From assembly GCA_030038595.1 (NCBI GenBank), contig JASHSW010000093.1, positions 1 to 6,572 of the forward strand: 6,572 nt of DNA, in the 5' to 3' direction. Position 1 is the stretch's first letter; each line of letters begins with the position of its first letter. Shown piece after piece: positions 145 to 6,572 of the stretch. The position numbers and the translations under genes are program-made. The notes under the pieces were generated by a model, which saw nothing but the letters and a program-made list of their open reading frames with translations, was not told the origin of the DNA and did not search any database. The DNA is from Methylovirgula sp. Lineage in GTDB: Bacteria > Pseudomonadota > Alphaproteobacteria > Rhizobiales > Beijerinckiaceae.

Positions 145-972
145 ATGCCCTCGCGACACGTTCTCCTGCGCGCCCTCCTCGTCGTCACGGCGCTTGCGGC
201 GAGCGCCGGAAACCTCGATGCCGCCGATCTCGGGAGCTTGTTTTCGGACGGGCCGGGAACGTATGTTCCGCCGGTTCAATTCGGCACCGGCTGGTATCTG
301 CGCGGCGATGCCGCGTTTGCCGACGATTCGATCCCGGCGGTCACTCCGGACCTCACGCAGTTTCTTTCCAACGCGCGGCAGGCGACGGTCAATCTCGATC
401 TCGGCTTCGGATACAAGTTCAACAGTTTCCTGCGCGCCGATGCGACCGTCGATTGGTGGAAGCCGATCGTAGCGTCGGGCGTGGGAACGGGGGCACAGTG
501 CATAACGCAGCTGACCACGATCAATAATATCCCAACACCAACCGCATACGACACCTGCACCCCTCACTATAATTCGAGCGTTCAACGCTGGGATGCTCTC
601 GCCAACCTCTATGCCGATCTCGGCACTTGGTATGGGGTTACGCCCTATATCGGCGGCGGCGCCGGACTGAGCCTCACGCATATATCCAGCGCGGTGAATT
701 GGTACATGTCCAACGGTTTGCCCTACCAAATTACGACCGACGGGTTCTACTATAATTGGGATAGCAGCCAGAGCATCACGCGCTATCAGTTCGCCTGGGC
801 GGCGATGGCCGGCTTCTCCTATGCGATCACGCCCAACATCCTGCTCGACATCGGCTACCGCTATATCGATCTCGGCAAGCTCGACAGCCTGCCGGGCCCG
901 AACGGCAGCGTCGTTTCGAAGACCATGGACGCGCATGAATTGCGGCTCGGCGTCCGCTACATGATCGATTGA
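145..972 (+). CDS. Outer membrane beta-barrel protein (Omp25/OmpA-like family)
   Basis: The 275-residue product begins with a signal peptide: Arg residues at 4 and 9, a hydrophobic run of about residues 7-20, and a likely cleavage after A26 (NLDA/ADLG). The mature part alternates aromatic and polar residues in amphipathic strands, for example GWYLRGDAAF (49-58), VNLDLGFGYKF (82-92), TPYIGGGAGLSL (166-177), NILLDIGYRYIDLG (231-244) and the last strand ELRLGVRYM (265-273). This is typical of 8-stranded barrels in the Omp25/RopB-like group of Rhizobiales. It probably sits in the outer membrane in a structural or surface role; no enzyme motif is seen. Two cysteines (119 and 138) flank a Thr/Asn/Pro-rich loop and could form a disulfide. 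The ATG is supported by AAGGAAG five bases upstream, although that site lies inside a hairpin. serC starts 44 bases downstream on the same strand. Confidence 0.85.
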   Translation: MPSRHVLLRALLVVTALAASAGNLDAADLGSLFSDGPGTYVPPVQFGTGWYLRGDAAFADDSIPAVTPDLTQFLSNARQATVNLDLGFGYKFNSFLRADATVDWWKPIVASGVGTGAQCITQLTTINNIPTPTAYDTCTPHYNSSVQRWDALANLYADLGTWYGVTPYIGGGAGLSLTHISSAVNWYMSNGLPYQITTDGFYYNWDSSQSITRYQFAWAAMAGFSYAITPNILLDIGYRYIDLGKLDSLPGPNGSVVSKTMDAHELRLGVRYMID

Positions 973-988
973 CGCCAACCTTGCGCCG

Positions 989-1016
989 CCGCGTCGCCCC
1001 GCTTTAGAGGACGCGG
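989..1016 (+). promoter_or_regulatory. Hairpin abutting the serC start codon
   Basis: CCGCGTC (989-995) and GACGCGG (1010-1016) are perfect 7-bp inverted arms with a 14-base loop. The right arm ends at the base before the GTG start at 1017. The Shine-Dalgarno sequence AGAGGA (1006-1011) straddles the loop and the first two bases of the right arm. The fold could tune initiation or couple it to translation of the upstream gene. The pairing is seen; the regulatory effect is inferred. In DNA this GC-rich, chance pairing is more likely than for the longer stem at 110-140. Confidence 0.4.
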
Positions 1017-2171
1017 GTGACAGCAATCCCCGCAGCCAAACCGCAACGCCCGTTCTTTGCGTCCGGCCCGTGCCCCAAACGGCCCGGTTGGACGCCGCAG
1101 AGCCTCCAGCATGCTTTGCTCGGCCGCTCGCACCGCAGTCCCGCCGGCCGGGCAAGGCTCAAGCAGGCTATCGATTGCACCCGCGAAGTTCTTGAAATCC
1201 CCTCGGAATACCGGATCGCCATCGTGCCGGCTTCCGACACGGGCGCGGTCGAATTGGCGCTCTGGTCGCTCATCGGCGCGCGCGGCGTCGACGTGCTCGC
1301 CTTCGATGCATTCGGCGAAACCTGGGTCGAAGACATCGTCCGGCACCTGCGGATCGACCGCGTCCGTGTCCTGAAAGCGCCGCCCGGCGCAATCGCCGAT
1401 CTTCATTCGGTCGATTTCGACCATGACGTGGTCTTCACCTGGAACGGGACGAGCACCGGCGTGCGGGTCCCGAACGGCGATTGGATCGACGTCGATCGCA
1501 AGGGCCTGACGATTTGCGATGCGACCTCCGCCGCCTTCGCCGAGCGGCTCGATTGGGACAAACTCGACGTTGCGACCTTTTCCTGGCAGAAGGCGCTGGG
1601 CGGCGAGGCCGCGCACGGCATGCTGGTGTTGGGACCCCGCGCGGTCGAGCGGCTCACGAGCTACGTCCCACCCCGCCCTCTGCCGAAGATCTTCCGGCTC
1701 ACCGAAGGCGGCAAGCTGATCGACGCCATTTTCGACGGCTGGACGATCAACACGCCGTCGATGCTTTGCGTCGAAGATTATCTCGATGCGCTCAGTTGGG
1801 CGCAATCGATCGGCGGGTTGGCCGCCCTCGTCGCCCGCAGCGAAGCCAACGCGCAAGCGCTCGCCAACTGGGTCGGAGTGACGGCCTGGATCGACTACCT
1901 CGCCAAAGACCCGGCGGTGCGTTCCAATACCAGCGTCTGCCTTGCGTTTGCCGAGCCGGCCGTGGCTACCCGCCCGCCGGAAGAGCGCCGCGCCTTGGCG
2001 AATAAGATCGTCGAGCGTCTCGAGGCGGAGAGGGTCGCCTACGACATCGGCGCCTACCGGCTTGCCCCGCCCGGCCTACGCATTTGGTGCGGCCCTACCG
2101 TCGAGACACGCGACATCGAACTGCTGACGCCCTGGCTCGATTGGGCCTATGGGCTGGCGCGCGGAGACTGA
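1017..2171 (+). CDS. serC: Phosphoserine aminotransferase
   Basis: This PLP-dependent class V-type aminotransferase converts 3-phosphohydroxypyruvate plus glutamate to O-phosphoserine plus 2-oxoglutarate in cytoplasmic serine biosynthesis. The 384-residue product has the features of the SerC subtype common in alphaproteobacteria: FFASGPCPKRPGW near the N-terminus (14-25), LLGRSHRS (34-41), the cofactor-site segment PASDTGAVELALW (71-83), ICDATSAAF (166-174), and SWQKALGGEAAHGM (189-202), in which K192 is the expected Schiff-base lysine. Its length is normal for the family and it appears intact. Translation starts at GTG 1017, five bases after AGAGGA (1006-1011); no upstream in-frame ATG is better. 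The 44-base gap to the beta-barrel gene allows co-transcription. The usual partner serA is not downstream: a repeat region and convergent genes follow instead. Confidence 0.93.
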   Translation: MTAIPAAKPQRPFFASGPCPKRPGWTPQSLQHALLGRSHRSPAGRARLKQAIDCTREVLEIPSEYRIAIVPASDTGAVELALWSLIGARGVDVLAFDAFGETWVEDIVRHLRIDRVRVLKAPPGAIADLHSVDFDHDVVFTWNGTSTGVRVPNGDWIDVDRKGLTICDATSAAFAERLDWDKLDVATFSWQKALGGEAAHGMLVLGPRAVERLTSYVPPRPLPKIFRLTEGGKLIDAIFDGWTINTPSMLCVEDYLDALSWAQSIGGLAALVARSEANAQALANWVGVTAWIDYLAKDPAVRSNTSVCLAFAEPAVATRPPEERRALANKIVERLEAERVAYDIGAYRLAPPGLRIWCGPTVETRDIELLTPWLDWAYGLARGD

Positions 2172-2192
2172 GAAGCTCCGTCATTGCGAGCA

Positions 2193-2240
2193 CCCTTCTC
2201 CCCATGTGTTCGCGCATGGGGTGAGGGCTGGGGTGAGGGG
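2193..2240 (-). repeat. Palindromic intergenic repeat, copy C, inverted; possible serC terminator
   Basis: Read on the minus strand, this begins CCCCTCACCCCAGCCCTC and continues into a stem, matching the lead of copies A and B. The stem on the plus strand is CCCCATGTG (2200-2208) with CGCATGGGG (2213-2221), nine pairs including one G-U, closed by a TTCG tetraloop. The arms differ from those of the other copies while the fold is kept, as expected of a diverged family member. It begins 21 bases after the serC stop and could end that transcript, although no T-run follows on the plus strand. Confidence 0.6.
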
Positions 2241-2276
2241 CGTGGGGATTAGCCGCGATGGAAGCAAATCGCCCGG

Positions 2277-2316
2277 CCCCTCACCCTAACCCTCTCCCCG
2301 CCAGCGGGGAGAGGGG
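2277..2316 (+). repeat. Palindromic intergenic repeat, copy B
   Basis: CCCCTCACCCTAAC leads into perfect 12-base arms CCCTCTCCCCGC (2290-2301) and GCGGGGAGAGGG (2304-2315) with only CA between them. The right arm equals that of copy A at 29-40. It faces copy C (2193-2240) head to head, so the pair fills the gap between the convergent serC and rpsT and could block read-through from both sides. The rest of the non-coding stretch 2172-2418 shows no gene. Confidence 0.78.
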
Positions 2317-2418
2317 ATATTTGCGCGCGCTCCCACACCCATGAGCGAATGGGATTGGTGGGTGGTCGCAGATGAAGGAACCGCGTTCTTGTCCGGCGAA
2401 GTGCGTCAAGCCGGCTGC

Positions 2419-2685
2419 TTATTTCGCCAGCGCGCGGACCCGGTGGCTCAAGCGCGAGACTTTGCGGGCCGCGGTATTCTTGTGGATGATGCCCTTCTGG
2501 GCGGCGCGTACGATGACCGGCTCGGCCTCGGAAAGCGCCGCGGCGGCGGCTTTCGCATTGCCGGCGGCGATCGCCTCTTCGACTTTGCGGACGAACGTGC
2601 GCATGCGGCTGCGCCGCGAACGGTTCGCCGCGGTGCGCCGGGCAATTTTCCGCGTCGCCTTTTTGGCCGAACTTGTATTCGCCAT
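2419..2685 (-). CDS. rpsT: 30S ribosomal protein S20
   Basis: S20 is a primary 16S rRNA-binding protein of the small ribosomal subunit. The 88-residue product has the standard size and composition for S20: it opens [19 protein letters not shown], is rich in Lys, Arg and Ala, and carries the conserved [16 protein letters not shown] helix (24-39) and [19 protein letters not shown] near the C-terminus. The ATG at 2683-2685 matches where family members start. The frame stays open 19 codons further upstream, but that extension lacks S20 character. It lies downstream of the enoyl-CoA hydratase on the same strand with its own promoter at 2757-2785. In many alphaproteobacteria dnaA follows rpsT; here it does not. 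Confidence 0.96.
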
Positions 2686-2719
2686 TTCTAAGACCCCGGA
2701 TGAAGAAGAATTCGCCGCT

Positions 2720-2732
2720 GCGCCCAAGGCGC
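2720..2732 (-). promoter_or_regulatory. Small hairpin in the rpsT leader
   Basis: On the minus strand GCGCC, TTG and GGCGC form a 5-bp stem in the untranslated leader between the predicted rpsT promoter and start codon. S20 synthesis is translationally autoregulated in E. coli, so leader structure could matter. The stem is short and may be chance in GC-rich DNA. Confidence 0.2.
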
Positions 2733-2756
2733 CGAGCCGCATTCGTTGGAAGCGGG

Positions 2757-2785
2757 CTTATAATTCGCGCCCAAGCAGGCGTCAA
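2757..2785 (-). promoter_or_regulatory. Sigma-70-type promoter for rpsT
   Basis: Read on the minus strand, TTGACG (2785-2780) is followed after exactly 17 bases by TATAAG (2762-2757). Each hexamer matches five of six consensus bases at optimal spacing, unusually good for this GC-rich sequence. Transcription would begin near 2750, giving a leader of roughly 65 bases before the rpsT ATG. The promoter starts just past the hydratase stop codon, so rpsT can be expressed independently of that gene. Confidence 0.7.
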
Positions 2786-2797
2786 CGCGGATGAAAT

Positions 2798-3562
2798 CTA
2801 GCGGTTCTTGAAATCGGGCTTGCGCTTTTCCAGAAACGCCGCCATTCCCTCCTTCTGATCCTGGGTCGCAAACAACGACTGGAAGAGGCGGCGTTCGAAG
2901 AGAATTCCTTCTTCCAGCCTGCTCTCGGCGTGCTTGATGCTTTCCTTGATCAGCATCACGGCCTGCGCCGGCATGGCGGCGATGGTGGCGGCGATATTCA
3001 GCGCCTCCGCCTCCAGATTTTCGGCTGGAACGATGCGCGCCACGAGCCCGGCGCGTTCGGCTTCGGCCGCGTCCATCGTCCGGCCGGTAAGGCAAAGGTC
3101 CATGGCCTTCGCCTTGCCGACCGCCCGCGTCAGGCGTTGCGTGCCGCCGCCGCCCGGCATGATTCCCAGTTTGATTTCGGGTTGGCCGAACTTGGCGTTG
3201 TCCGCGGCGATGATGATGTCACACATCATCGCAAGTTCGCAGCCGCCGCCAAGCGCGAACCCCGCGACCGCGGCGATCGTCGGTTTGCGGACCCTGGCGA
3301 GCTGCTGCCAATCGCCGACGAAATCCTCGGCGAGCGCCTCGATATAGGTTTTGGCGTGCATTTCCTTGATGTCGGCTCCGGCGGCGAAGGCCTTGGCCGA
3401 GCCGGCGACCACGATGCAGCCGATTGCGGGATCTGCCTCGAAGGTATCGAGCGCCGCGTTCAATTCCCCGACCAACGCCGCGTTGATCGCGTTCAAGGCC
3501 GCTGGCCGGTTGAAGCGGAGAAGGCCGACGCTTGCGTGGATTTCGACAGCGACCGTTGCCAT
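2798..3562 (-). CDS. Enoyl-CoA hydratase (crotonase family)
   Basis: This cytoplasmic crotonase-fold enzyme should hydrate trans-2-enoyl-CoA to 3-hydroxyacyl-CoA in fatty acid beta-oxidation. The 254-residue product is full length. It shows the oxyanion-hole segment [15 protein letters not shown] (54-68), the [16 protein letters not shown] block (101-116) with catalytic E109, and [20 protein letters not shown] (125-144) with catalytic E129. The two glutamates are 20 residues apart, as in mitochondrial short-chain enoyl-CoA hydratase, and the C-terminus ([17 protein letters not shown]) matches that subgroup closely. The ATG at 3560-3562 has GAGG six bases upstream; the open frame extends 31 codons further without family similarity. 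rpsT lies 112 bases downstream on the same strand, an arrangement common in alphaproteobacteria. Confidence 0.93.
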
Positions 3563-3607
3563 GCTCCGCCTCGAATCAGTCGATGCGCGGCCGGTCGCCG
3601 CGCGATC

Positions 3608-3622
3608 TGCCGCAATGCGGCA
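3608..3622. promoter_or_regulatory. 6-bp inverted repeat in the hydratase leader
   Basis: TGCCGC (3608-3613) and GCGGCA (3617-3622) are perfect arms around AAT, 46 bases upstream of the hydratase start codon. It may be an operator or leader hairpin for that gene. No consensus promoter could be placed with confidence beside it. Confidence 0.3.
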
Positions 3623-3656
3623 AAGTGTATGCGGCGCGGCGCCCTGCCGGCGCATT

Positions 3657-3673
3657 GTTACGGTTTGTAACCG
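3657..3673. promoter_or_regulatory. Overlapping palindromes in the divergent intergenic region
   Basis: GTTAC/GTAAC (3657-3661 and 3667-3671) and CGGTT/AACCG (3661-3665 and 3669-3673) overlap in one AT-richer patch between the divergent hydratase and alpha-oxoamine synthase genes. A TTGACT hexamer at 3677-3682 follows and could be a -35 box for the plus-strand gene, but no good -10 stands at 16-18 bases. The patch is the best candidate regulator-binding site between these genes. The rest of 3563-3731 shows no gene. Confidence 0.3.
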
Positions 3674-3731
3674 GATTTGACTTACCGTTCCAACCGTCTG
3701 CTTCTAAAGATGTACACTTAGTTCCCAAAGT

Positions 3732-5099
3732 ATGGGTGGGGGCACTCTCCTTGGCATCGGCGCCTTCCCTTTTGCCGCACGGCCTTGGGGATGTTATGGG
3801 TTGGCCAATGTCTCAGGATTTGCCGGCGCTTGCGGCGCAAATCCGCCCTTGAATCATTGGACAAAGGCGTTGGTCCTGAAACTAAATAGCCTTGCTGATT
3901 ATGCGAGCAAGCGTCTCCGGCGTGCCGGCAAGGGCTATCTCGAAGAATACGATCCGTTTTTCGTGCCGATCGACAGCGCCCGCCAAGAGGCGGATGTGCA
4001 AGGCCGGCATTTCGTCAGTTTCGCCAATTACGACTATCTCGGCATCTCCAGCCATCCGGCGGTAAAAGCGGCGGCCGGCGCTGCGCTCGAATCTTTGGGC
4101 GTCGGCGCACTCGCCTCGCGGCTCGTCGGCGGCGAACGCTCGACCCATCATGTTTTCGAGGAAAGCCTCGCGCAATTCTTGGGAGTCGAATCGGTCCTAA
4201 CGCTGGTTTCCGGCTATCTCACCAACGTCACGACGATCTCCCACGTCATGAACACCCACGACGCGATCTTCCTCGACGAGCTTTCTCACAACAGCATCAT
4301 CTGCGGCGCCAAGGGGACCAGCGCCACGACCGTGGTCTTTCGCCACAACGATCTCGATCATCTCGACGCTTTGCTGCGCGACAGACGTGGCACCTACCGG
4401 CACGTGCTGATCGTCGTCGAGGCGCTCTACAGCATGGACGGCGACATCGTCGATCTGCCCCGGCTCATCGAAATCAAGGAGAGGCACAAGGCGTGGCTTT
4501 TGGTCGATGAGGCGCATTCGATCGGCGTGCTCGGTCAGGACGGCCGCGGGCTTTGCGAATATTCCGGCGTCGATCCGGCGCAGATCGATCTCATCATTGG
4601 CACCTTGTCGAAGACGCTTGCTTCCTGCGGCGGCTTCATCGGCGGCAAGGCGCCGGTCATCGAGTGGCTGCGCTATACGCTGCCCGGATTCGTGTTCAGC
4701 GTCGGTCTGTCGCCGGTGATCGTCGCCGCCGCCTATACGGCGCTGCAAATCGTCAAGAAAGAACCTTGGCGGATCGAGCGGCTGCGTCAGAACGCTGAAC
4801 TGTTCGTCGAGCTGGCGCGCGAAGCCGGACTCGATACCGGCCCGGCGATCGGGCGCGGCGTAGTGCCGATCCTCTTCTCCGACAGCCACGAGACGTTGGC
4901 GGCATCGCGGCACCTGATGGACCATGGCTATTACGTGCCGCCGATCATCCAAATCGGGGTGCCGAAGAACCAGCCGCGGCTGCGTTTCTTCCTCTCCGCC
5001 GCGCACAAGAGCGAAGATATCCGCAAGGTCATCCAGCTTCTTGCCCGCTGCCGGACCCAGGCGTCGGTATCGACGCAACGGGTCAGCGCCGCGACTTGA
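3732..5099 (+). CDS. Alpha-oxoamine synthase, probable serine palmitoyltransferase-like enzyme
   Basis: This PLP-dependent class II aminotransferase-fold enzyme should join an amino acid to an acyl thioester with loss of CO2. The family includes serine palmitoyltransferase (SPT), 8-amino-7-oxononanoate synthase (BioF), Kbl and 5-aminolevulinate synthase. Counting from ATG 3732, visible landmarks are FVSFANYDYLG (94-104), SHNSI with the PLP-stacking H186, VDEAHSIGVLG (258-268) with D259 and H262, and GTLSKTLASCGGFIGG (290-305) with Schiff-base K294. DEAHSIG, the DPAQIDLIIGTLSK stretch and GGFIGGK resemble SPT more than BioF. No biotin genes adjoin it, and a GNAT-like acyltransferase follows after 79 bases, both favouring a sphingoid-base role. 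The substrate is inferred. The start is uncertain: 3732 is the only ATG before the family core, but it lacks a clear ribosome site and the first 40 or so residues look unrelated. TTG codons at 3801, 3849 or 3870 are alternatives. Confidence 0.85.
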   Translation: MGGGTLLGIGAFPFAARPWGCYGLANVSGFAGACGANPPLNHWTKALVLKLNSLADYASKRLRRAGKGYLEEYDPFFVPIDSARQEADVQGRHFVSFANYDYLGISSHPAVKAAAGAALESLGVGALASRLVGGERSTHHVFEESLAQFLGVESVLTLVSGYLTNVTTISHVMNTHDAIFLDELSHNSIICGAKGTSATTVVFRHNDLDHLDALLRDRRGTYRHVLIVVEALYSMDGDIVDLPRLIEIKERHKAWLLVDEAHSIGVLGQDGRGLCEYSGVDPAQIDLIIGTLSKTLASCGGFIGGKAPVIEWLRYTLPGFVFSVGLSPVIVAAAYTALQIVKKEPWRIERLRQNAELFVELAREAGLDTGPAIGRGVVPILFSDSHETLAASRHLMDHGYYVPPIIQIGVPKNQPRLRFFLSAAHKSEDIRKVIQLLARCRTQASVSTQRVSAAT

Positions 5100-5108
5100 G
5101 CGGCAATC

Positions 5109-5134
5109 CAAAATTCGCGAAACCCGCAATTTTG
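5109..5134 (+). promoter_or_regulatory. Hairpin between the oxoamine synthase and acyltransferase genes
   Basis: CAAAATT (5109-5115) pairs with AATTTTG (5128-5134), and after a bulged C, GCG (5117-5119) pairs with CGC (5125-5127) around the loop AAACC. That makes ten pairs in a 79-base gap. AAAAG (5142-5146) and CTTTT (5154-5158) can form a second small stem, and CCAAAA at 5108 can alternatively pair with TTTTGG at 5155-5160. It could attenuate or protect the shared mRNA. It is a poor match for an intrinsic terminator, since the stem is AT-rich and no U-tract follows. Confidence 0.35.
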
Positions 5135-5178
5135 TTCCTCGAAAAGACCGGCGCTTTTGGAATGAACGGGTCTGGTGC

Positions 5179-6354
5179 ATGAGCGAAATTGCGATCCTCC
5201 CGGTCGCCGGGCTCGGAACCTTCGTCGATTTTTGCAAGGTGCCCCGGCTCATCTACAAAGGCGCCAAGGGCTTCGCGCCGCCGCTCGATGCCGAACGCTG
5301 GACCTTGCACGGCGCCAAGCTCAATCCGCACTTCAAGCTCGTCGATTACCAAGGCTGGCTGGCGCGCAAGGACGGCAAGCTCGCCGGGCGGATCTATGCC
5401 CAGGTCTACAAGGACGGCAGTATTCCCAACGGCGTCTCGCGGTTTCAATTCGGCACGTTCGATGCAATCGAGGACGAATCTGTGGTCGATGCCTTGCTTG
5501 CCGCTGCCGAGAATTGGCTTGCCGAACGCGGTGCACGGACGATCCACGGGCCTTTCTCGCCCTCGGTCAACGCCGAGTGCGGCATGCTCGTCGACGGATT
5601 TAGCGCCGTGCCGATGATTTTCATGCCCTGGAACCCGCCCTATCTTCCCGCCCTCCTCGAGCGTCGCGGCTACCGCAAGGCGCGCGACCTCATCTCCTAC
5701 CGCTACGACGTCACCGCCGCCGACCACGTCGAGCGGCCGGGCATTATCGCGCGCCCCGAATGGCGCGATCGGTTGAAGATCCGCGACATCGACCTGAAGG
5801 CGATGAAGACGGAGGCGGCGCTCATCGTCGATATTTTCAACGACGCCTGGAGCGAGAACTGGGGGTTCGTGCCGTTCACCTACGACGAGTTCATGTCGAC
5901 CGCCGATGCACTGAAATACGTGATGCCTCGGGAGGGCGGCTTTATCGTCGAGCTCGACGGCGCCGGCCAAGCGTTCGGCATCGTTCTGCCGAACCTGCAC
6001 GAGATCACCGCCGATTTCGACGGCAGGCTTTTCCCGTTCGGGTTGCCGCGGCTGATCGCGAGGATCCGCAGCCATCCGTTCGAATCGGGCCGGCTCTGCC
6101 TGTTCGGCGTCCGCCGCGCCTTGCATCGCAAGGCGGCGGGCGGCGCCGTCATCCTCGCGTTCATCGAAGAATGCCGGCGCCGTTCAAGCCGCTACGCCAG
6201 CATGGAACACGTCGAATTCGGCTGGGTTCTGGAGGATAATCTCGGAATGCGCCGCCCGATCGAACTTTCCGGCGCCCGGATCGACAAGGTCCACCGCATC
6301 TACGAAAAGGACCTCGCGGCGCCGCGCGGCGCGCTGCAAGGAGCGGCGCGATAG
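5179..6354 (+). CDS. GNAT-fold acyltransferase-like protein, candidate bacterial ceramide synthase
   Basis: The 391-residue protein belongs to a family of large, poorly characterised proteins with an acyl-CoA N-acyltransferase fold. Landmarks are the N-terminal FCKVPRLIYKGAKGFAPPL (18-36), the highly characteristic HGPFSPSVNAECGMLVDGF (123-141), PMIFMPWNPPYLPALLERRGY (145-165), NDAWSENWGFVPFTYDEF (221-238) and the C-terminal VLEDNLGMRRPIE (350-362) leading to KVHRIYEKDL. No signal peptide or clear membrane segment is seen, so it is probably cytoplasmic or peripheral. Caulobacter ceramide synthase bCerS is described as a GNAT-like protein, and this gene directly follows an SPT-like gene, which suggests N-acylation of a sphingoid-type amine; that function is inference. 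The ATG at 5179 fits family starts. The frame is open back to 4924 but that part lies inside the upstream gene and has no family character. The ribosome binding site is weak. Confidence 0.8.
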   Translation: MSEIAILPVAGLGTFVDFCKVPRLIYKGAKGFAPPLDAERWTLHGAKLNPHFKLVDYQGWLARKDGKLAGRIYAQVYKDGSIPNGVSRFQFGTFDAIEDESVVDALLAAAENWLAERGARTIHGPFSPSVNAECGMLVDGFSAVPMIFMPWNPPYLPALLERRGYRKARDLISYRYDVTAADHVERPGIIARPEWRDRLKIRDIDLKAMKTEAALIVDIFNDAWSENWGFVPFTYDEFMSTADALKYVMPREGGFIVELDGAGQAFGIVLPNLHEITADFDGRLFPFGLPRLIARIRSHPFESGRLCLFGVRRALHRKAAGGAVILAFIEECRRRSSRYASMEHVEFGWVLEDNLGMRRPIELSGARIDKVHRIYEKDLAAPRGALQGAAR

Positions 6355-6486
6355 ATGATTGAATTCCGGATCGTTCGCTGTGCATTTGGGCTGCTTCCAA
6401 CCTTTGCAAGGCGGGCGTCGCAAGGATCGACTTTCGGCGCAAGCCGATGTATCGAAGAACGAGCATCCTGAAAGCGAGGACTGCGC
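6355..6486 (+). other. Intergenic gap with a small GNRA-loop hairpin
   Basis: This gap carries no convincing gene or promoter. TCGGC (6434-6438) and GCCGA (6443-6447) form a 5-bp stem closed by the tetraloop GCAA, about 40 bases before the next start codon; it may be a leader structure or chance. No terminator-like hairpin with a T-run is visible, so the downstream gene could share the transcript of the upstream pair. Confidence 0.3.
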
Positions 6487-6572
6487 ATGAATATTGCGGT
6501 TCGGGAGCAAGGATCAGGAGCCGAGCACCTCCCCGAGACCTTCCTGAAGGGCGAGCCGATGCGGCCGCATCC
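6487..6572 (+). CDS. Start of an unidentified gene, truncated by the window end
   Basis: The ATG at 6487 is preceded by AGCGAGGA with AGGA at 6477-6480, six bases from the start: the clearest ribosome binding site in the right half of the window. Twenty-eight full codons are open to the last base, beginning MNIAVREQGSGAEHLPETF. The visible part is charged and hydrophilic with no signal peptide, membrane segment or recognisable motif, so no function is offered. It is 132 bases downstream of the acyltransferase-like gene on the same strand and may belong to the same operon. Confidence 0.55.
   Translation, partial: MNIAVREQGSGAEHLPETFLKGEPMRPH

What the first reader, a model, noticed from the sequence alone, without database searches (positions are those of the whole stretch)
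3732..6354. Compact candidate sphingolipid module: SPT-like alpha-oxoamine synthase next to a GNAT-like candidate ceramide synthase
Seen: an alpha-oxoamine synthase with K294, D259, H262 and the SPT-like DEAHSIG and GGFIGGK segments, followed after 79 bases by a GNAT-fold protein of the HGPFSPSVNAECG family. Known: Caulobacter makes ceramide with Spt and a GNAT-like bCerS, encoded a few genes apart. Inference: the two genes here carry out sphingoid-base formation and N-acylation, or make a related N-acylated amino lipid. No acyl carrier protein, acyl-ACP synthetase or reductase gene lies in the window, so either they are elsewhere or this is a different lipid pathway.
Basis: partly seen in the sequence, partly recalled or inferred. 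Interest (0 to 1): 0.7.

Follow-up and report, generated by a model that had tools for sequence, protein, structure and literature searches.

The report
Second bacterial ceramide pathway, with Δ4-desaturase
In this relative of methane-oxidizing bacteria, two neighbouring genes and a conserved set of companion genes likely build ceramide-type membrane lipids, predicted to carry the double bond known from animal sphingolipids, by a route assembled from partly different enzymes than the known bacterial one.

Summary
The window is one whole contig of a Methylovirgula-like genome: an alpha-oxoamine synthase (AOS) and, 79 bases on, a predicted tandem-GNAT protein, 36% identical to E. coli YghO, a bacterial ceramide synthase homologue. 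The sphingolipid reading is supported, but this is not the Caulobacter gene set. The AOS lies outside the Spt, BioF, Kbl and ALAS clades, the GNAT protein in its own clade. The third gene, cut by the contig end, is a desaturase whose relatives carry Pfam's sphingolipid Delta4-desaturase domain (11 of 11 scored). Glycosyltransferase, SDR, ketoacyl synthase and acyl carrier protein genes follow on contig C102. Of 60 relatives, the same 15 hold window-type GNAT and desaturase. AOS, GNAT and desaturase are consecutive in 34 of 38 Pseudomonadota loci of a capped desaturase scan; AOS and GNAT of other lineages share the locus in 17 of 27 Verrucomicrobiota loci. No CerR or AasR was seen in the 80 loci. 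Most likely: a Delta4-unsaturated ceramide pathway of methanotroph-related Alphaproteobacteria. No activity or lipid was tested.

The parts
3870..5099 (+). alpha-oxoamine synthase, predicted serine palmitoyltransferase of a non-canonical lineage (ORF can be read from 3732; conserved part begins about 3870, TTG)
5179..6354 (+). tandem-GNAT N-acyltransferase of the bCerS/YghO family, predicted ceramide synthase
6487..6572 (+). first codons of the predicted sphingolipid Delta4-desaturase; gene cut by the contig end, remainder at the end of contig C102 (its bases 20542 down to 19655)
   Evidence: PF08557 in relatives

Best explanation
The AOS-GNAT pair belongs to a conserved gene set that likely makes ceramide-type sphingolipids: the AOS would condense an acyl thioester with L-serine to 3-ketosphinganine, the SDR would reduce it, the GNAT protein would N-acylate it, and the desaturase is predicted to add the Delta4 double bond. 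The glycosyltransferase would add a sugar to the head group. The acyl carrier protein and ketoacyl synthase would supply the acyl chain, taking the place of the acyl-ACP synthetase AasR of Caulobacter. Shown here: the genes, their homology, their linkage, and their joint presence or absence across the genomes searched. Inferred: the amino acid used, the order of N-acylation and reduction, the acyl donor, the exact desaturase product, and the lipid itself.
For: AOS catalytic residues intact. GNAT protein 36% identical over 379 aa to YghO of the E. coli BL21 ceramide operon (operon; YghO as homologue of Caulobacter CC_1154, PMC9386255 passages). Members of the third gene's family carry PF08557 above cut-off in 11 of 11 scored. 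The rest of the set lies in the own genome on C102, whose end falls in the same desaturase gene. GNAT (58% or more) and desaturase (61% or more) are in the same 15 of 60 relatives; one more, G054, has a desaturase (51%) and a GNAT at only 35% (Fisher 3e-13 by genome, 4e-7 by genus, relatedness not removed). KAS (60% or more) is in those 15 plus G010. KAS (60% or more) and SDR (53% or more) orthologues are in 14 of 14 tested genomes whose stretch around the pair lacks them, against 37-41% KAS and at most 40% SDR in 4 genomes with other desaturase loci. In 34 of 34 window-type loci the AOS, GNAT and desaturase are consecutive, gaps under 400 bases. Of 80 desaturase loci, 54 also hold an AOS and a GNAT-family gene, with AOS from three lineages. 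The complete relative G006 holds separate BioF and ALAS genes that pass their NCBIfam cut-offs.
Against: No activity or lipid data. The AOS scores 297 of 500, 292 of 640 and 215 of 670 bits against the three NCBIfam Spt models, and its best NCBIfam score is BioF, 347 of a needed 426. AOS and GNAT both lie outside the canonical Spt and bCerS clades. The desaturase stands without AOS and GNAT in the stretch held in 14 of 14 Bacteroidota and 5 of 27 Verrucomicrobiota loci, and with an AOS but no GNAT in 7 more; some of these are short contigs. In 24 of the 34 window-type loci a KAS above 55% is not in the stretch held. G013 has its desaturase on another contig than the pair, and G019 has only a 48% SDR away from the cluster. 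A 2020 study of Alphaproteobacteria states that sphingolipids appear restricted to Sphingomonadales (PMC7179689, passages), though Caulobacter is a counter-example.
Confidence: 0.77

Rival explanations
1. Same pathway, but the desaturase-family enzyme hydroxylates C4 (phytoceramide type) or is bifunctional, so the product is a hydroxylated rather than Delta4-unsaturated ceramide.
For: Membrane desaturases and hydroxylases share the fold and histidine boxes; the animal DES2 enzyme is bifunctional (both recalled). A DesA-family protein, CC_0202, is reported to be responsible for hydroxylation of the amide-linked acyl chain in Caulobacter (PMC11324152, passage).
Against: The Pfam hit is the Delta4-desaturase model PF08557, which does not itself separate the two activities.
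Confidence: 0.12
2. The AOS uses another amino acid (alanine, glycine, cysteate), so the pair makes a deoxysphingolipid, sulfonolipid or other N-acylated amino lipid.
For: AOS in a separate clade from canonical Spt and below Spt cut-offs; a cysteate enzyme is among its structural relatives (28eh); its motif GTLSKTxASCGGF differs from the approximate Spt pattern GTFSKSxxxIGGF.
Against: The co-inherited glycosyltransferase would need a C1 hydroxyl as acceptor, which serine gives (inference); the desaturase family is named for sphingolipids.
Confidence: 0.15
3. The AOS is BioF or Kbl (biotin or threonine metabolism) and its neighbour an unrelated acetyltransferase.
For: Best NCBIfam score is BioF, 347 bits.
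Against: Below the BioF cut-off of 426; G006 has another AOS that passes BioF (427.2) and one that passes ALAS (626.5); window clade separate from BioF, Kbl and ALAS; co-inheritance with a sphingolipid-type desaturase.
Confidence: 0.02
4. The gene set is a real lipid module, but the GNAT protein acylates something else (O-acylation or acyl transfer to a protein or sugar), with N-acylation done elsewhere.
For: GNAT clade separate from bCerS with a long stem of about 0.9-1.0 changes per column.
Against: Conserved core shared with YghO, including NWGFVPFT and GPFS; GNATs of this same family stand near AOS genes of several lineages.
Confidence: 0.08

Closest known systems
Caulobacter/E. coli B ceramide genes (aasR, cerR/epi, acpR, spt, bcerS/aca/yghO)
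   Same: AOS plus a YghO-family acyltransferase plus an ACP and a reductase; the E. coli set is, and of 16 canonical Spt loci of the class 14 hold CerR, 13 AasR and 10 a YghO-like gene, three of these partial
   Different: AOS from another lineage; GNAT in its own clade; classical SDR (PF00106) instead of the epimerase-type CerR (PF01370); KAS + ACP, and no AasR seen in 80 loci; desaturase with PF08557 and GT2 added
Eukaryotic sphingolipid route (SPT, KDSR, ceramide synthase, DEGS1, glucosylceramide synthase; recalled)
   Same: SPT-type AOS, classical SDR reductase, DES-family desaturase with PF08557, glycosyltransferase
   Different: N-acyltransferase is a GNAT, not the eukaryotic membrane-bound ceramide synthase type (recalled); ACP and KAS beside it; one AOS instead of two SPT subunits
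Verrucomicrobiota loci with desaturase, Spt-like AOS and YghO-like GNAT
   Same: desaturase, AOS and GNAT-family gene in one locus in 17 of 27
   Different: AOS and GNAT of other lineages (six such loci placed, one of them acidobacterial); desaturase first; no window-type GT/KAS/ACP block in the locus
BioF (8-amino-7-oxononanoate synthase)
   Same: AOS family and PLP residues
   Different: below cut-off, separate clade, and a separate BioF in the complete relative G006

Membership tests
Canonical bacterial serine palmitoyltransferase | score above NCBIfam cut-off (NF047599, NF047600, NF047603) | tested here: not met
   296.7 of 500, 292.4 of 640, 214.7 of 670 bits. The cut-offs are strict: only 1 of 16 strong NF047603 loci of the class passes, and Caulobacter and E. 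coli ring but do not pass
Canonical bacterial serine palmitoyltransferase | PLP lysine, aspartate and histidine of AOS enzymes | tested here: met
   K294, D259, H262
Canonical bacterial serine palmitoyltransferase | falls in the Spt clade | tested here: not met
   window and sister lineage form their own group (98*; 99*); unrooted quick trees, deep forks weak
Canonical bacterial serine palmitoyltransferase | L-serine as substrate | not testable with these tools
   needs enzyme assay
BioF | score above TIGR00858 cut-off | tested here: not met
   347.3 of 426.45 bits
bCerS/YghO N-acyltransferase family | full-length homology | tested here: met
   36% over 379 aa, E 6e-77; 34-39% to GNATs of 9 canonical ceramide loci, two of them partial. 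Caulobacter bCerS itself was not in hand
bCerS/YghO N-acyltransferase family | tandem GNAT fold | tested here: met
   model pLDDT 86.3, pTM 0.85; best PDB matches tandem GNATs
bCerS/YghO N-acyltransferase family | inside the clade of GNATs from canonical ceramide loci | tested here: not met
   own clade, 100* and long stem; set apart at 95* and 98* (where one canonical GNAT, L094, stands beside it)
bCerS/YghO N-acyltransferase family | N-acylates a long-chain base | not testable with these tools
   needs assay
Sphingolipid Delta4-desaturase (DES) | PF08557 plus PF00487 domains | tested here: met
   11 of 11 relatives' proteins above both cut-offs. In the own genome the gene is split over two contigs and PF08557 was not found
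Sphingolipid Delta4-desaturase (DES) | three histidine boxes | tested here: met
   HDxxHN, HxKHH and HNEHH in 7 of 7 aligned relatives; that these boxes define the family is recalled
Sphingolipid Delta4-desaturase (DES) | introduces a Delta4 double bond into a sphingoid base | not testable with these tools
   needs assay or lipid analysis
Caulobacter-type ceramide operon | CerR and AasR homologues near the synthase | tested here: not met
   0 of 80 desaturase loci, 34 of them window-type (50 bits or more, best hit per place); the same queries find CerR in 14 and AasR in 13 of 16 canonical loci. The rest of the genomes was not searched for them

The most novel reading that the evidence does not exclude
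Alphaproteobacterial methanotrophs and their relatives make Delta4-unsaturated glycosylceramides by a separately assembled, eukaryote-like pathway. A third AOS lineage, a divergent GNAT ceramide synthase, a classical SDR, a DES-family desaturase and a de novo ACP/ketoacyl-synthase acyl feed replace the Caulobacter Spt-CerR-AasR set. Ceramide synthesis would then have arisen at least three times in bacteria around the same GNAT and desaturase parts.
Probability: 0.5. Interest if true: 0.82.

Novelty: new variant of a known kind. Interest (0 to 1): 0.68.

Why it matters
If true, well-known soil and wetland methane oxidizers (Methylocella, Methylocapsa, Methylocystis, Methylosinus) carry a membrane lipid class that the papers I saw do not report for them; one 2020 study held sphingolipids to be restricted to Sphingomonadales within the class (PMC7179689, passages). 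It would also be a bacterial source of the Delta4 double bond that marks animal sphingolipids. It would give a culturable system to test how ceramide synthesis was assembled more than once from AOS, GNAT and desaturase parts, a candidate lipid biomarker for methanotrophs, and bacterial relatives of DEGS1 for biochemistry. The expected lipids are directly measurable in existing cultures.

Tried and rejected
BioF/Kbl reading: rejected by cut-offs, trees and a separate BioF in G006. The AOS as an orthologue of Caulobacter-type/E. coli Spt: rejected by trees. Desaturase search in the plasmid collection: no match. PDB sequence searches with the GNAT protein, YghO and the desaturase gave no meaningful hit. 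A promoter/terminator scan of 3650-6572 was near the shuffle level (1 promoter vs 0.6, 5 terminators vs 3.4); Rfam found nothing in the window.

Literature: ten paper searches, of which searches returned no paper and several others capped lists. I saw listings with abstract starts, passages of PMC9386255, PMC11334938, PMC11765627, PMC11324152, PMC12322946, PMC10667739 and PMC7179689, and abstract plus outline of PMC11087976. None of what I saw reports sphingolipids of Beijerinckiaceae or Methylocystaceae, or a bacterial Delta4 sphingolipid desaturase. PMC10667739 says that the genetic potential for sphingolipids is found in a wider range of genera, citing the 2022 survey of bacterial ceramide synthesis; that survey (doi 10.1038/s41589-021-00948-7) is not held and may list some of these genomes. 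A recalled lead (a mycobacterial AOS with an extra domain) was not tested.

Own errors: the AOS query was cut one base out of frame, so its AOS rows are not used (searches use the right frame). Rows dropped: one search skipped two short GNAT pieces (L056, L090); one search left out two partial AOS (L030, L100); one search left out two partial GNATs (L055, L089); one search left out seven AOS (the two partial ones, four near-duplicates, one long-branch row) and four GNATs (the two partial ones, two near-duplicates). Stops inside rows were read as X in trees, and GNAT rows were cut at 430 residues.
Full report
What is in the window. The window is the whole of contig C4 (6,572 bases) of a draft genome of 1.85 Mb in 253 contigs, 81.8% complete. 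The closest named protein to the GNAT-like protein is from a Methylovirgula sp. (89%). In order it holds an outer-membrane beta-barrel protein gene (PF13505), serC (above its NCBIfam cut-offs), rpsT-like and enoyl-CoA hydratase-like ORFs on the minus strand (named by eye), the AOS, the GNAT-like gene, and the first codons of a third gene at 6487 that runs off the end.

The AOS. It hits PF00155 and solved SPT, BioF, Kbl and ALAS structures, best a bacterial SPT, 3a2b. It passes no cut-off of the NCBIfam models it hits best: BioF 347 of 426, Spt models 297 of 500, 292 of 640, 215 of 670. In two unrooted quick trees (57 and 65 rows) it sits in a clade with its relatives; with a sister lineage this forms a group supported at 98 and 99, apart from canonical Spt (18 rows, with E. 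coli Spt), BioF, Kbl and ALAS. The deepest forks are weak (31), so which of these is nearest is open. In the complete relative G006, which has three AOS genes, the other two pass the BioF (427.2 vs 426.45) and ALAS (626.5 vs 338.55) cut-offs. In 36 relatives a window-type AOS (68% or more) occurs in 14.

The GNAT-like protein. It has no Pfam or NCBIfam hit, and YghO has none in Pfam. It is 36% identical over 379 aa to YghO from the E. coli BL21 ceramide operon, which PMC9386255 names as the homologue of Caulobacter CC_1154, needed for dihydroceramide formation (passages). PMC11087976 calls the Caulobacter acyltransferase bCerS (abstract and outline). The window protein is 34-39% identical to GNATs in canonical ceramide loci of other Alphaproteobacteria, which are 40-46% identical to YghO (a 47-residue piece in L091, 38% to YghO, left out). 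Trees put it in its own clade, supported at 100, with a long stem. AlphaFold gives pLDDT 86.3 and pTM 0.85, and Foldseek matches tandem GNATs, FemX and N-myristoyltransferases.

The third gene and the rest of the set. In relative G006 the next gene encodes a membrane desaturase with PF00487 and PF08557, Pfam's sphingolipid Delta4-desaturase domain, above cut-off. Ten further members, including one Verrucomicrobiota and one Bacteroidota protein, also pass (11 of 11 in all). Beyond it, on the other strand, lie a GT2 glycosyltransferase, a classical SDR, a ketoacyl synthase and an ACP. In the own genome a 5.7 kb stretch of relative G008 matches the end of C4 (95%) and then the end of contig C102 (89%), leaving 28 of its bases between. 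C102 holds the rest of the desaturase gene and the GT, SDR, KAS and ACP genes. So a candidate reductase and carrier protein are in the genome, apparently next door.

Linkage and co-inheritance. An AOS is next to a window-type GNAT gene in 15 of 15 genomes; a second GNAT copy in G013 stands alone. Over 60 relatives, GNAT at 58% or more and desaturase at 61% or more are in the same 15; G054 has a desaturase at 51% and a GNAT at 35%. KAS at 60% or more is in those 15 and in G010 (three more genomes have KAS at 51-54%). G010 is a draft with a window-type AOS near a contig end and no window-type GNAT or desaturase found. Fisher tests give 3e-13 by genome and 4e-7 by genus; relatedness is not removed. 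In ten named methanotroph genomes and in G010, G013, G017 and G027, where the second block is not in the stretch held around the pair (for the drafts the contig ends may be the reason), KAS (60% or more) and SDR (53% or more) are still present in 14 of 14; in four genomes with other loci (G451-G454) KAS is 37-41% and SDR at most 40% or not found. Outliers: G013 has its desaturase on another contig, and G019 only a 48% SDR away from the cluster.

Wider distribution. Of 38 Pseudomonadota loci, 34 hold window-type AOS and GNAT, 2 an AOS and a YghO-like GNAT, 2 an AOS only. Of 27 Verrucomicrobiota loci, 17 hold an AOS and a YghO-like GNAT, 5 an AOS only, 5 neither. One Acidobacteriota locus holds both, and 14 of 14 Bacteroidota loci neither. 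Some loci are short contigs. In the 34 window-type loci the three genes are consecutive with gaps under 400 bases, on one strand in 33; in L161 the desaturase is on the other strand. Named carriers include Methylocapsa acidiphila, M. aurea and M. palsarum, Methylocella silvestris and M. tundrae, Methylocystis rosea and M. silviterrae, Methylosinus sporium and Beijerinckia sp. L45. In a draw of 385 genomes of the class, 2 have the desaturase at 1e-20, the own genome and G397, so it is not a common desaturase of the class. The AOS partners of the desaturase fall in three lineages: the window's, its sister (L227, L234) and a verrucomicrobial one.

Comparison with the known pathway. Canonical Spt (1e-100 to NF047603) is in 16 of 142 class genomes and not in G000. 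Around those 16, CerR is seen in 14, AasR in 13 and a YghO-like GNAT in 10, three of them partial. No CerR or AasR hit was seen in the 80 desaturase loci; whole genomes were not searched for them. PMC9386255 reports that AasR loads the special carrier protein AcpR, which Spt prefers (abstract and passages). Here a KAS beside the ACP suggests that the chain comes from synthesis instead; this is inference.

Mechanism and limits. Predicted: serine plus acyl thioester to 3-ketosphinganine (AOS); reduction (SDR); N-acylation (GNAT); Delta4 double bond (desaturase); sugar (GT). Whether N-acylation precedes reduction, as one group proposes for Caulobacter (abstract), is open. Nothing here shows an activity or a lipid.

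Novelty. Each part is of a known kind. The combination, its lineages and its steady presence in methanotroph-related Alphaproteobacteria were not seen in ten paper searches of an open-access library, nor in the passages read. One of these, a 2020 study, says that sphingolipids appear restricted to Sphingomonadales within the class (PMC7179689). The 2022 survey of bacterial ceramide genes could not be read.

Noticed in passing
L187, L192, L194-L196, L198, L201, L204, L211-L214, L218, L219, L221, L223, L226: 17 Verrucomicrobiota loci carry desaturase, an Spt- or AOS-like gene and a YghO-like GNAT in one locus; those placed in trees are of other AOS and GNAT lineages than the window's, so this looks like a second, separate pairing.
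   Followed up: partly
L188, L199, L206, L207, L210, L215-L217, L225, L228-L230, L232, L233: 14 of 14 Bacteroidota loci have the desaturase (PF08557 scored in one, L207) without AOS or GNAT in the stretch held; whether their SPT lies elsewhere was not checked.
   Followed up: no
L043 (G017), L054 (G010); L132-L138: A sister AOS lineage about 42-47% identical to the window's; in L043 and L054 it is followed by a GNAT only 27-30% identical to the window's, so some genomes may have two AOS-GNAT pairs for two lipids.
   Followed up: partly
L051 (G032); L222 (Afipia sp.); L227: AOS, SDR (38-40% to the cluster SDR) and a GNAT-family gene in one locus in other Hyphomicrobiales, which supports the SDR as the reductase of the pathway.
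   Followed up: partly
L046 (G031), L052 (G054): A GNAT of this family (34-37%) near ACP and ketoacyl synthase genes (52-54% to the cluster KAS), which would fit an ACP-bound acyl donor.
   Followed up: no
L237, L238 (G397): Two desaturase copies (45%) in one genome of another alphaproteobacterial family, one with a YghO-like GNAT close by.
   Followed up: no
L040 (G013): An extra window-type GNAT (58%) with no AOS beside it, in a stretch that looks like hydrogenase genes by eye.
   Followed up: no
window 145-3655: Beta-barrel protein, serC, rpsT-like and enoyl-CoA hydratase-like genes upstream keep this order beside the AOS in relatives L032, L035 and L036, and from serC on in L034, where the contig begins; serC makes a serine precursor, but a functional link is not shown.
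   Followed up: partly
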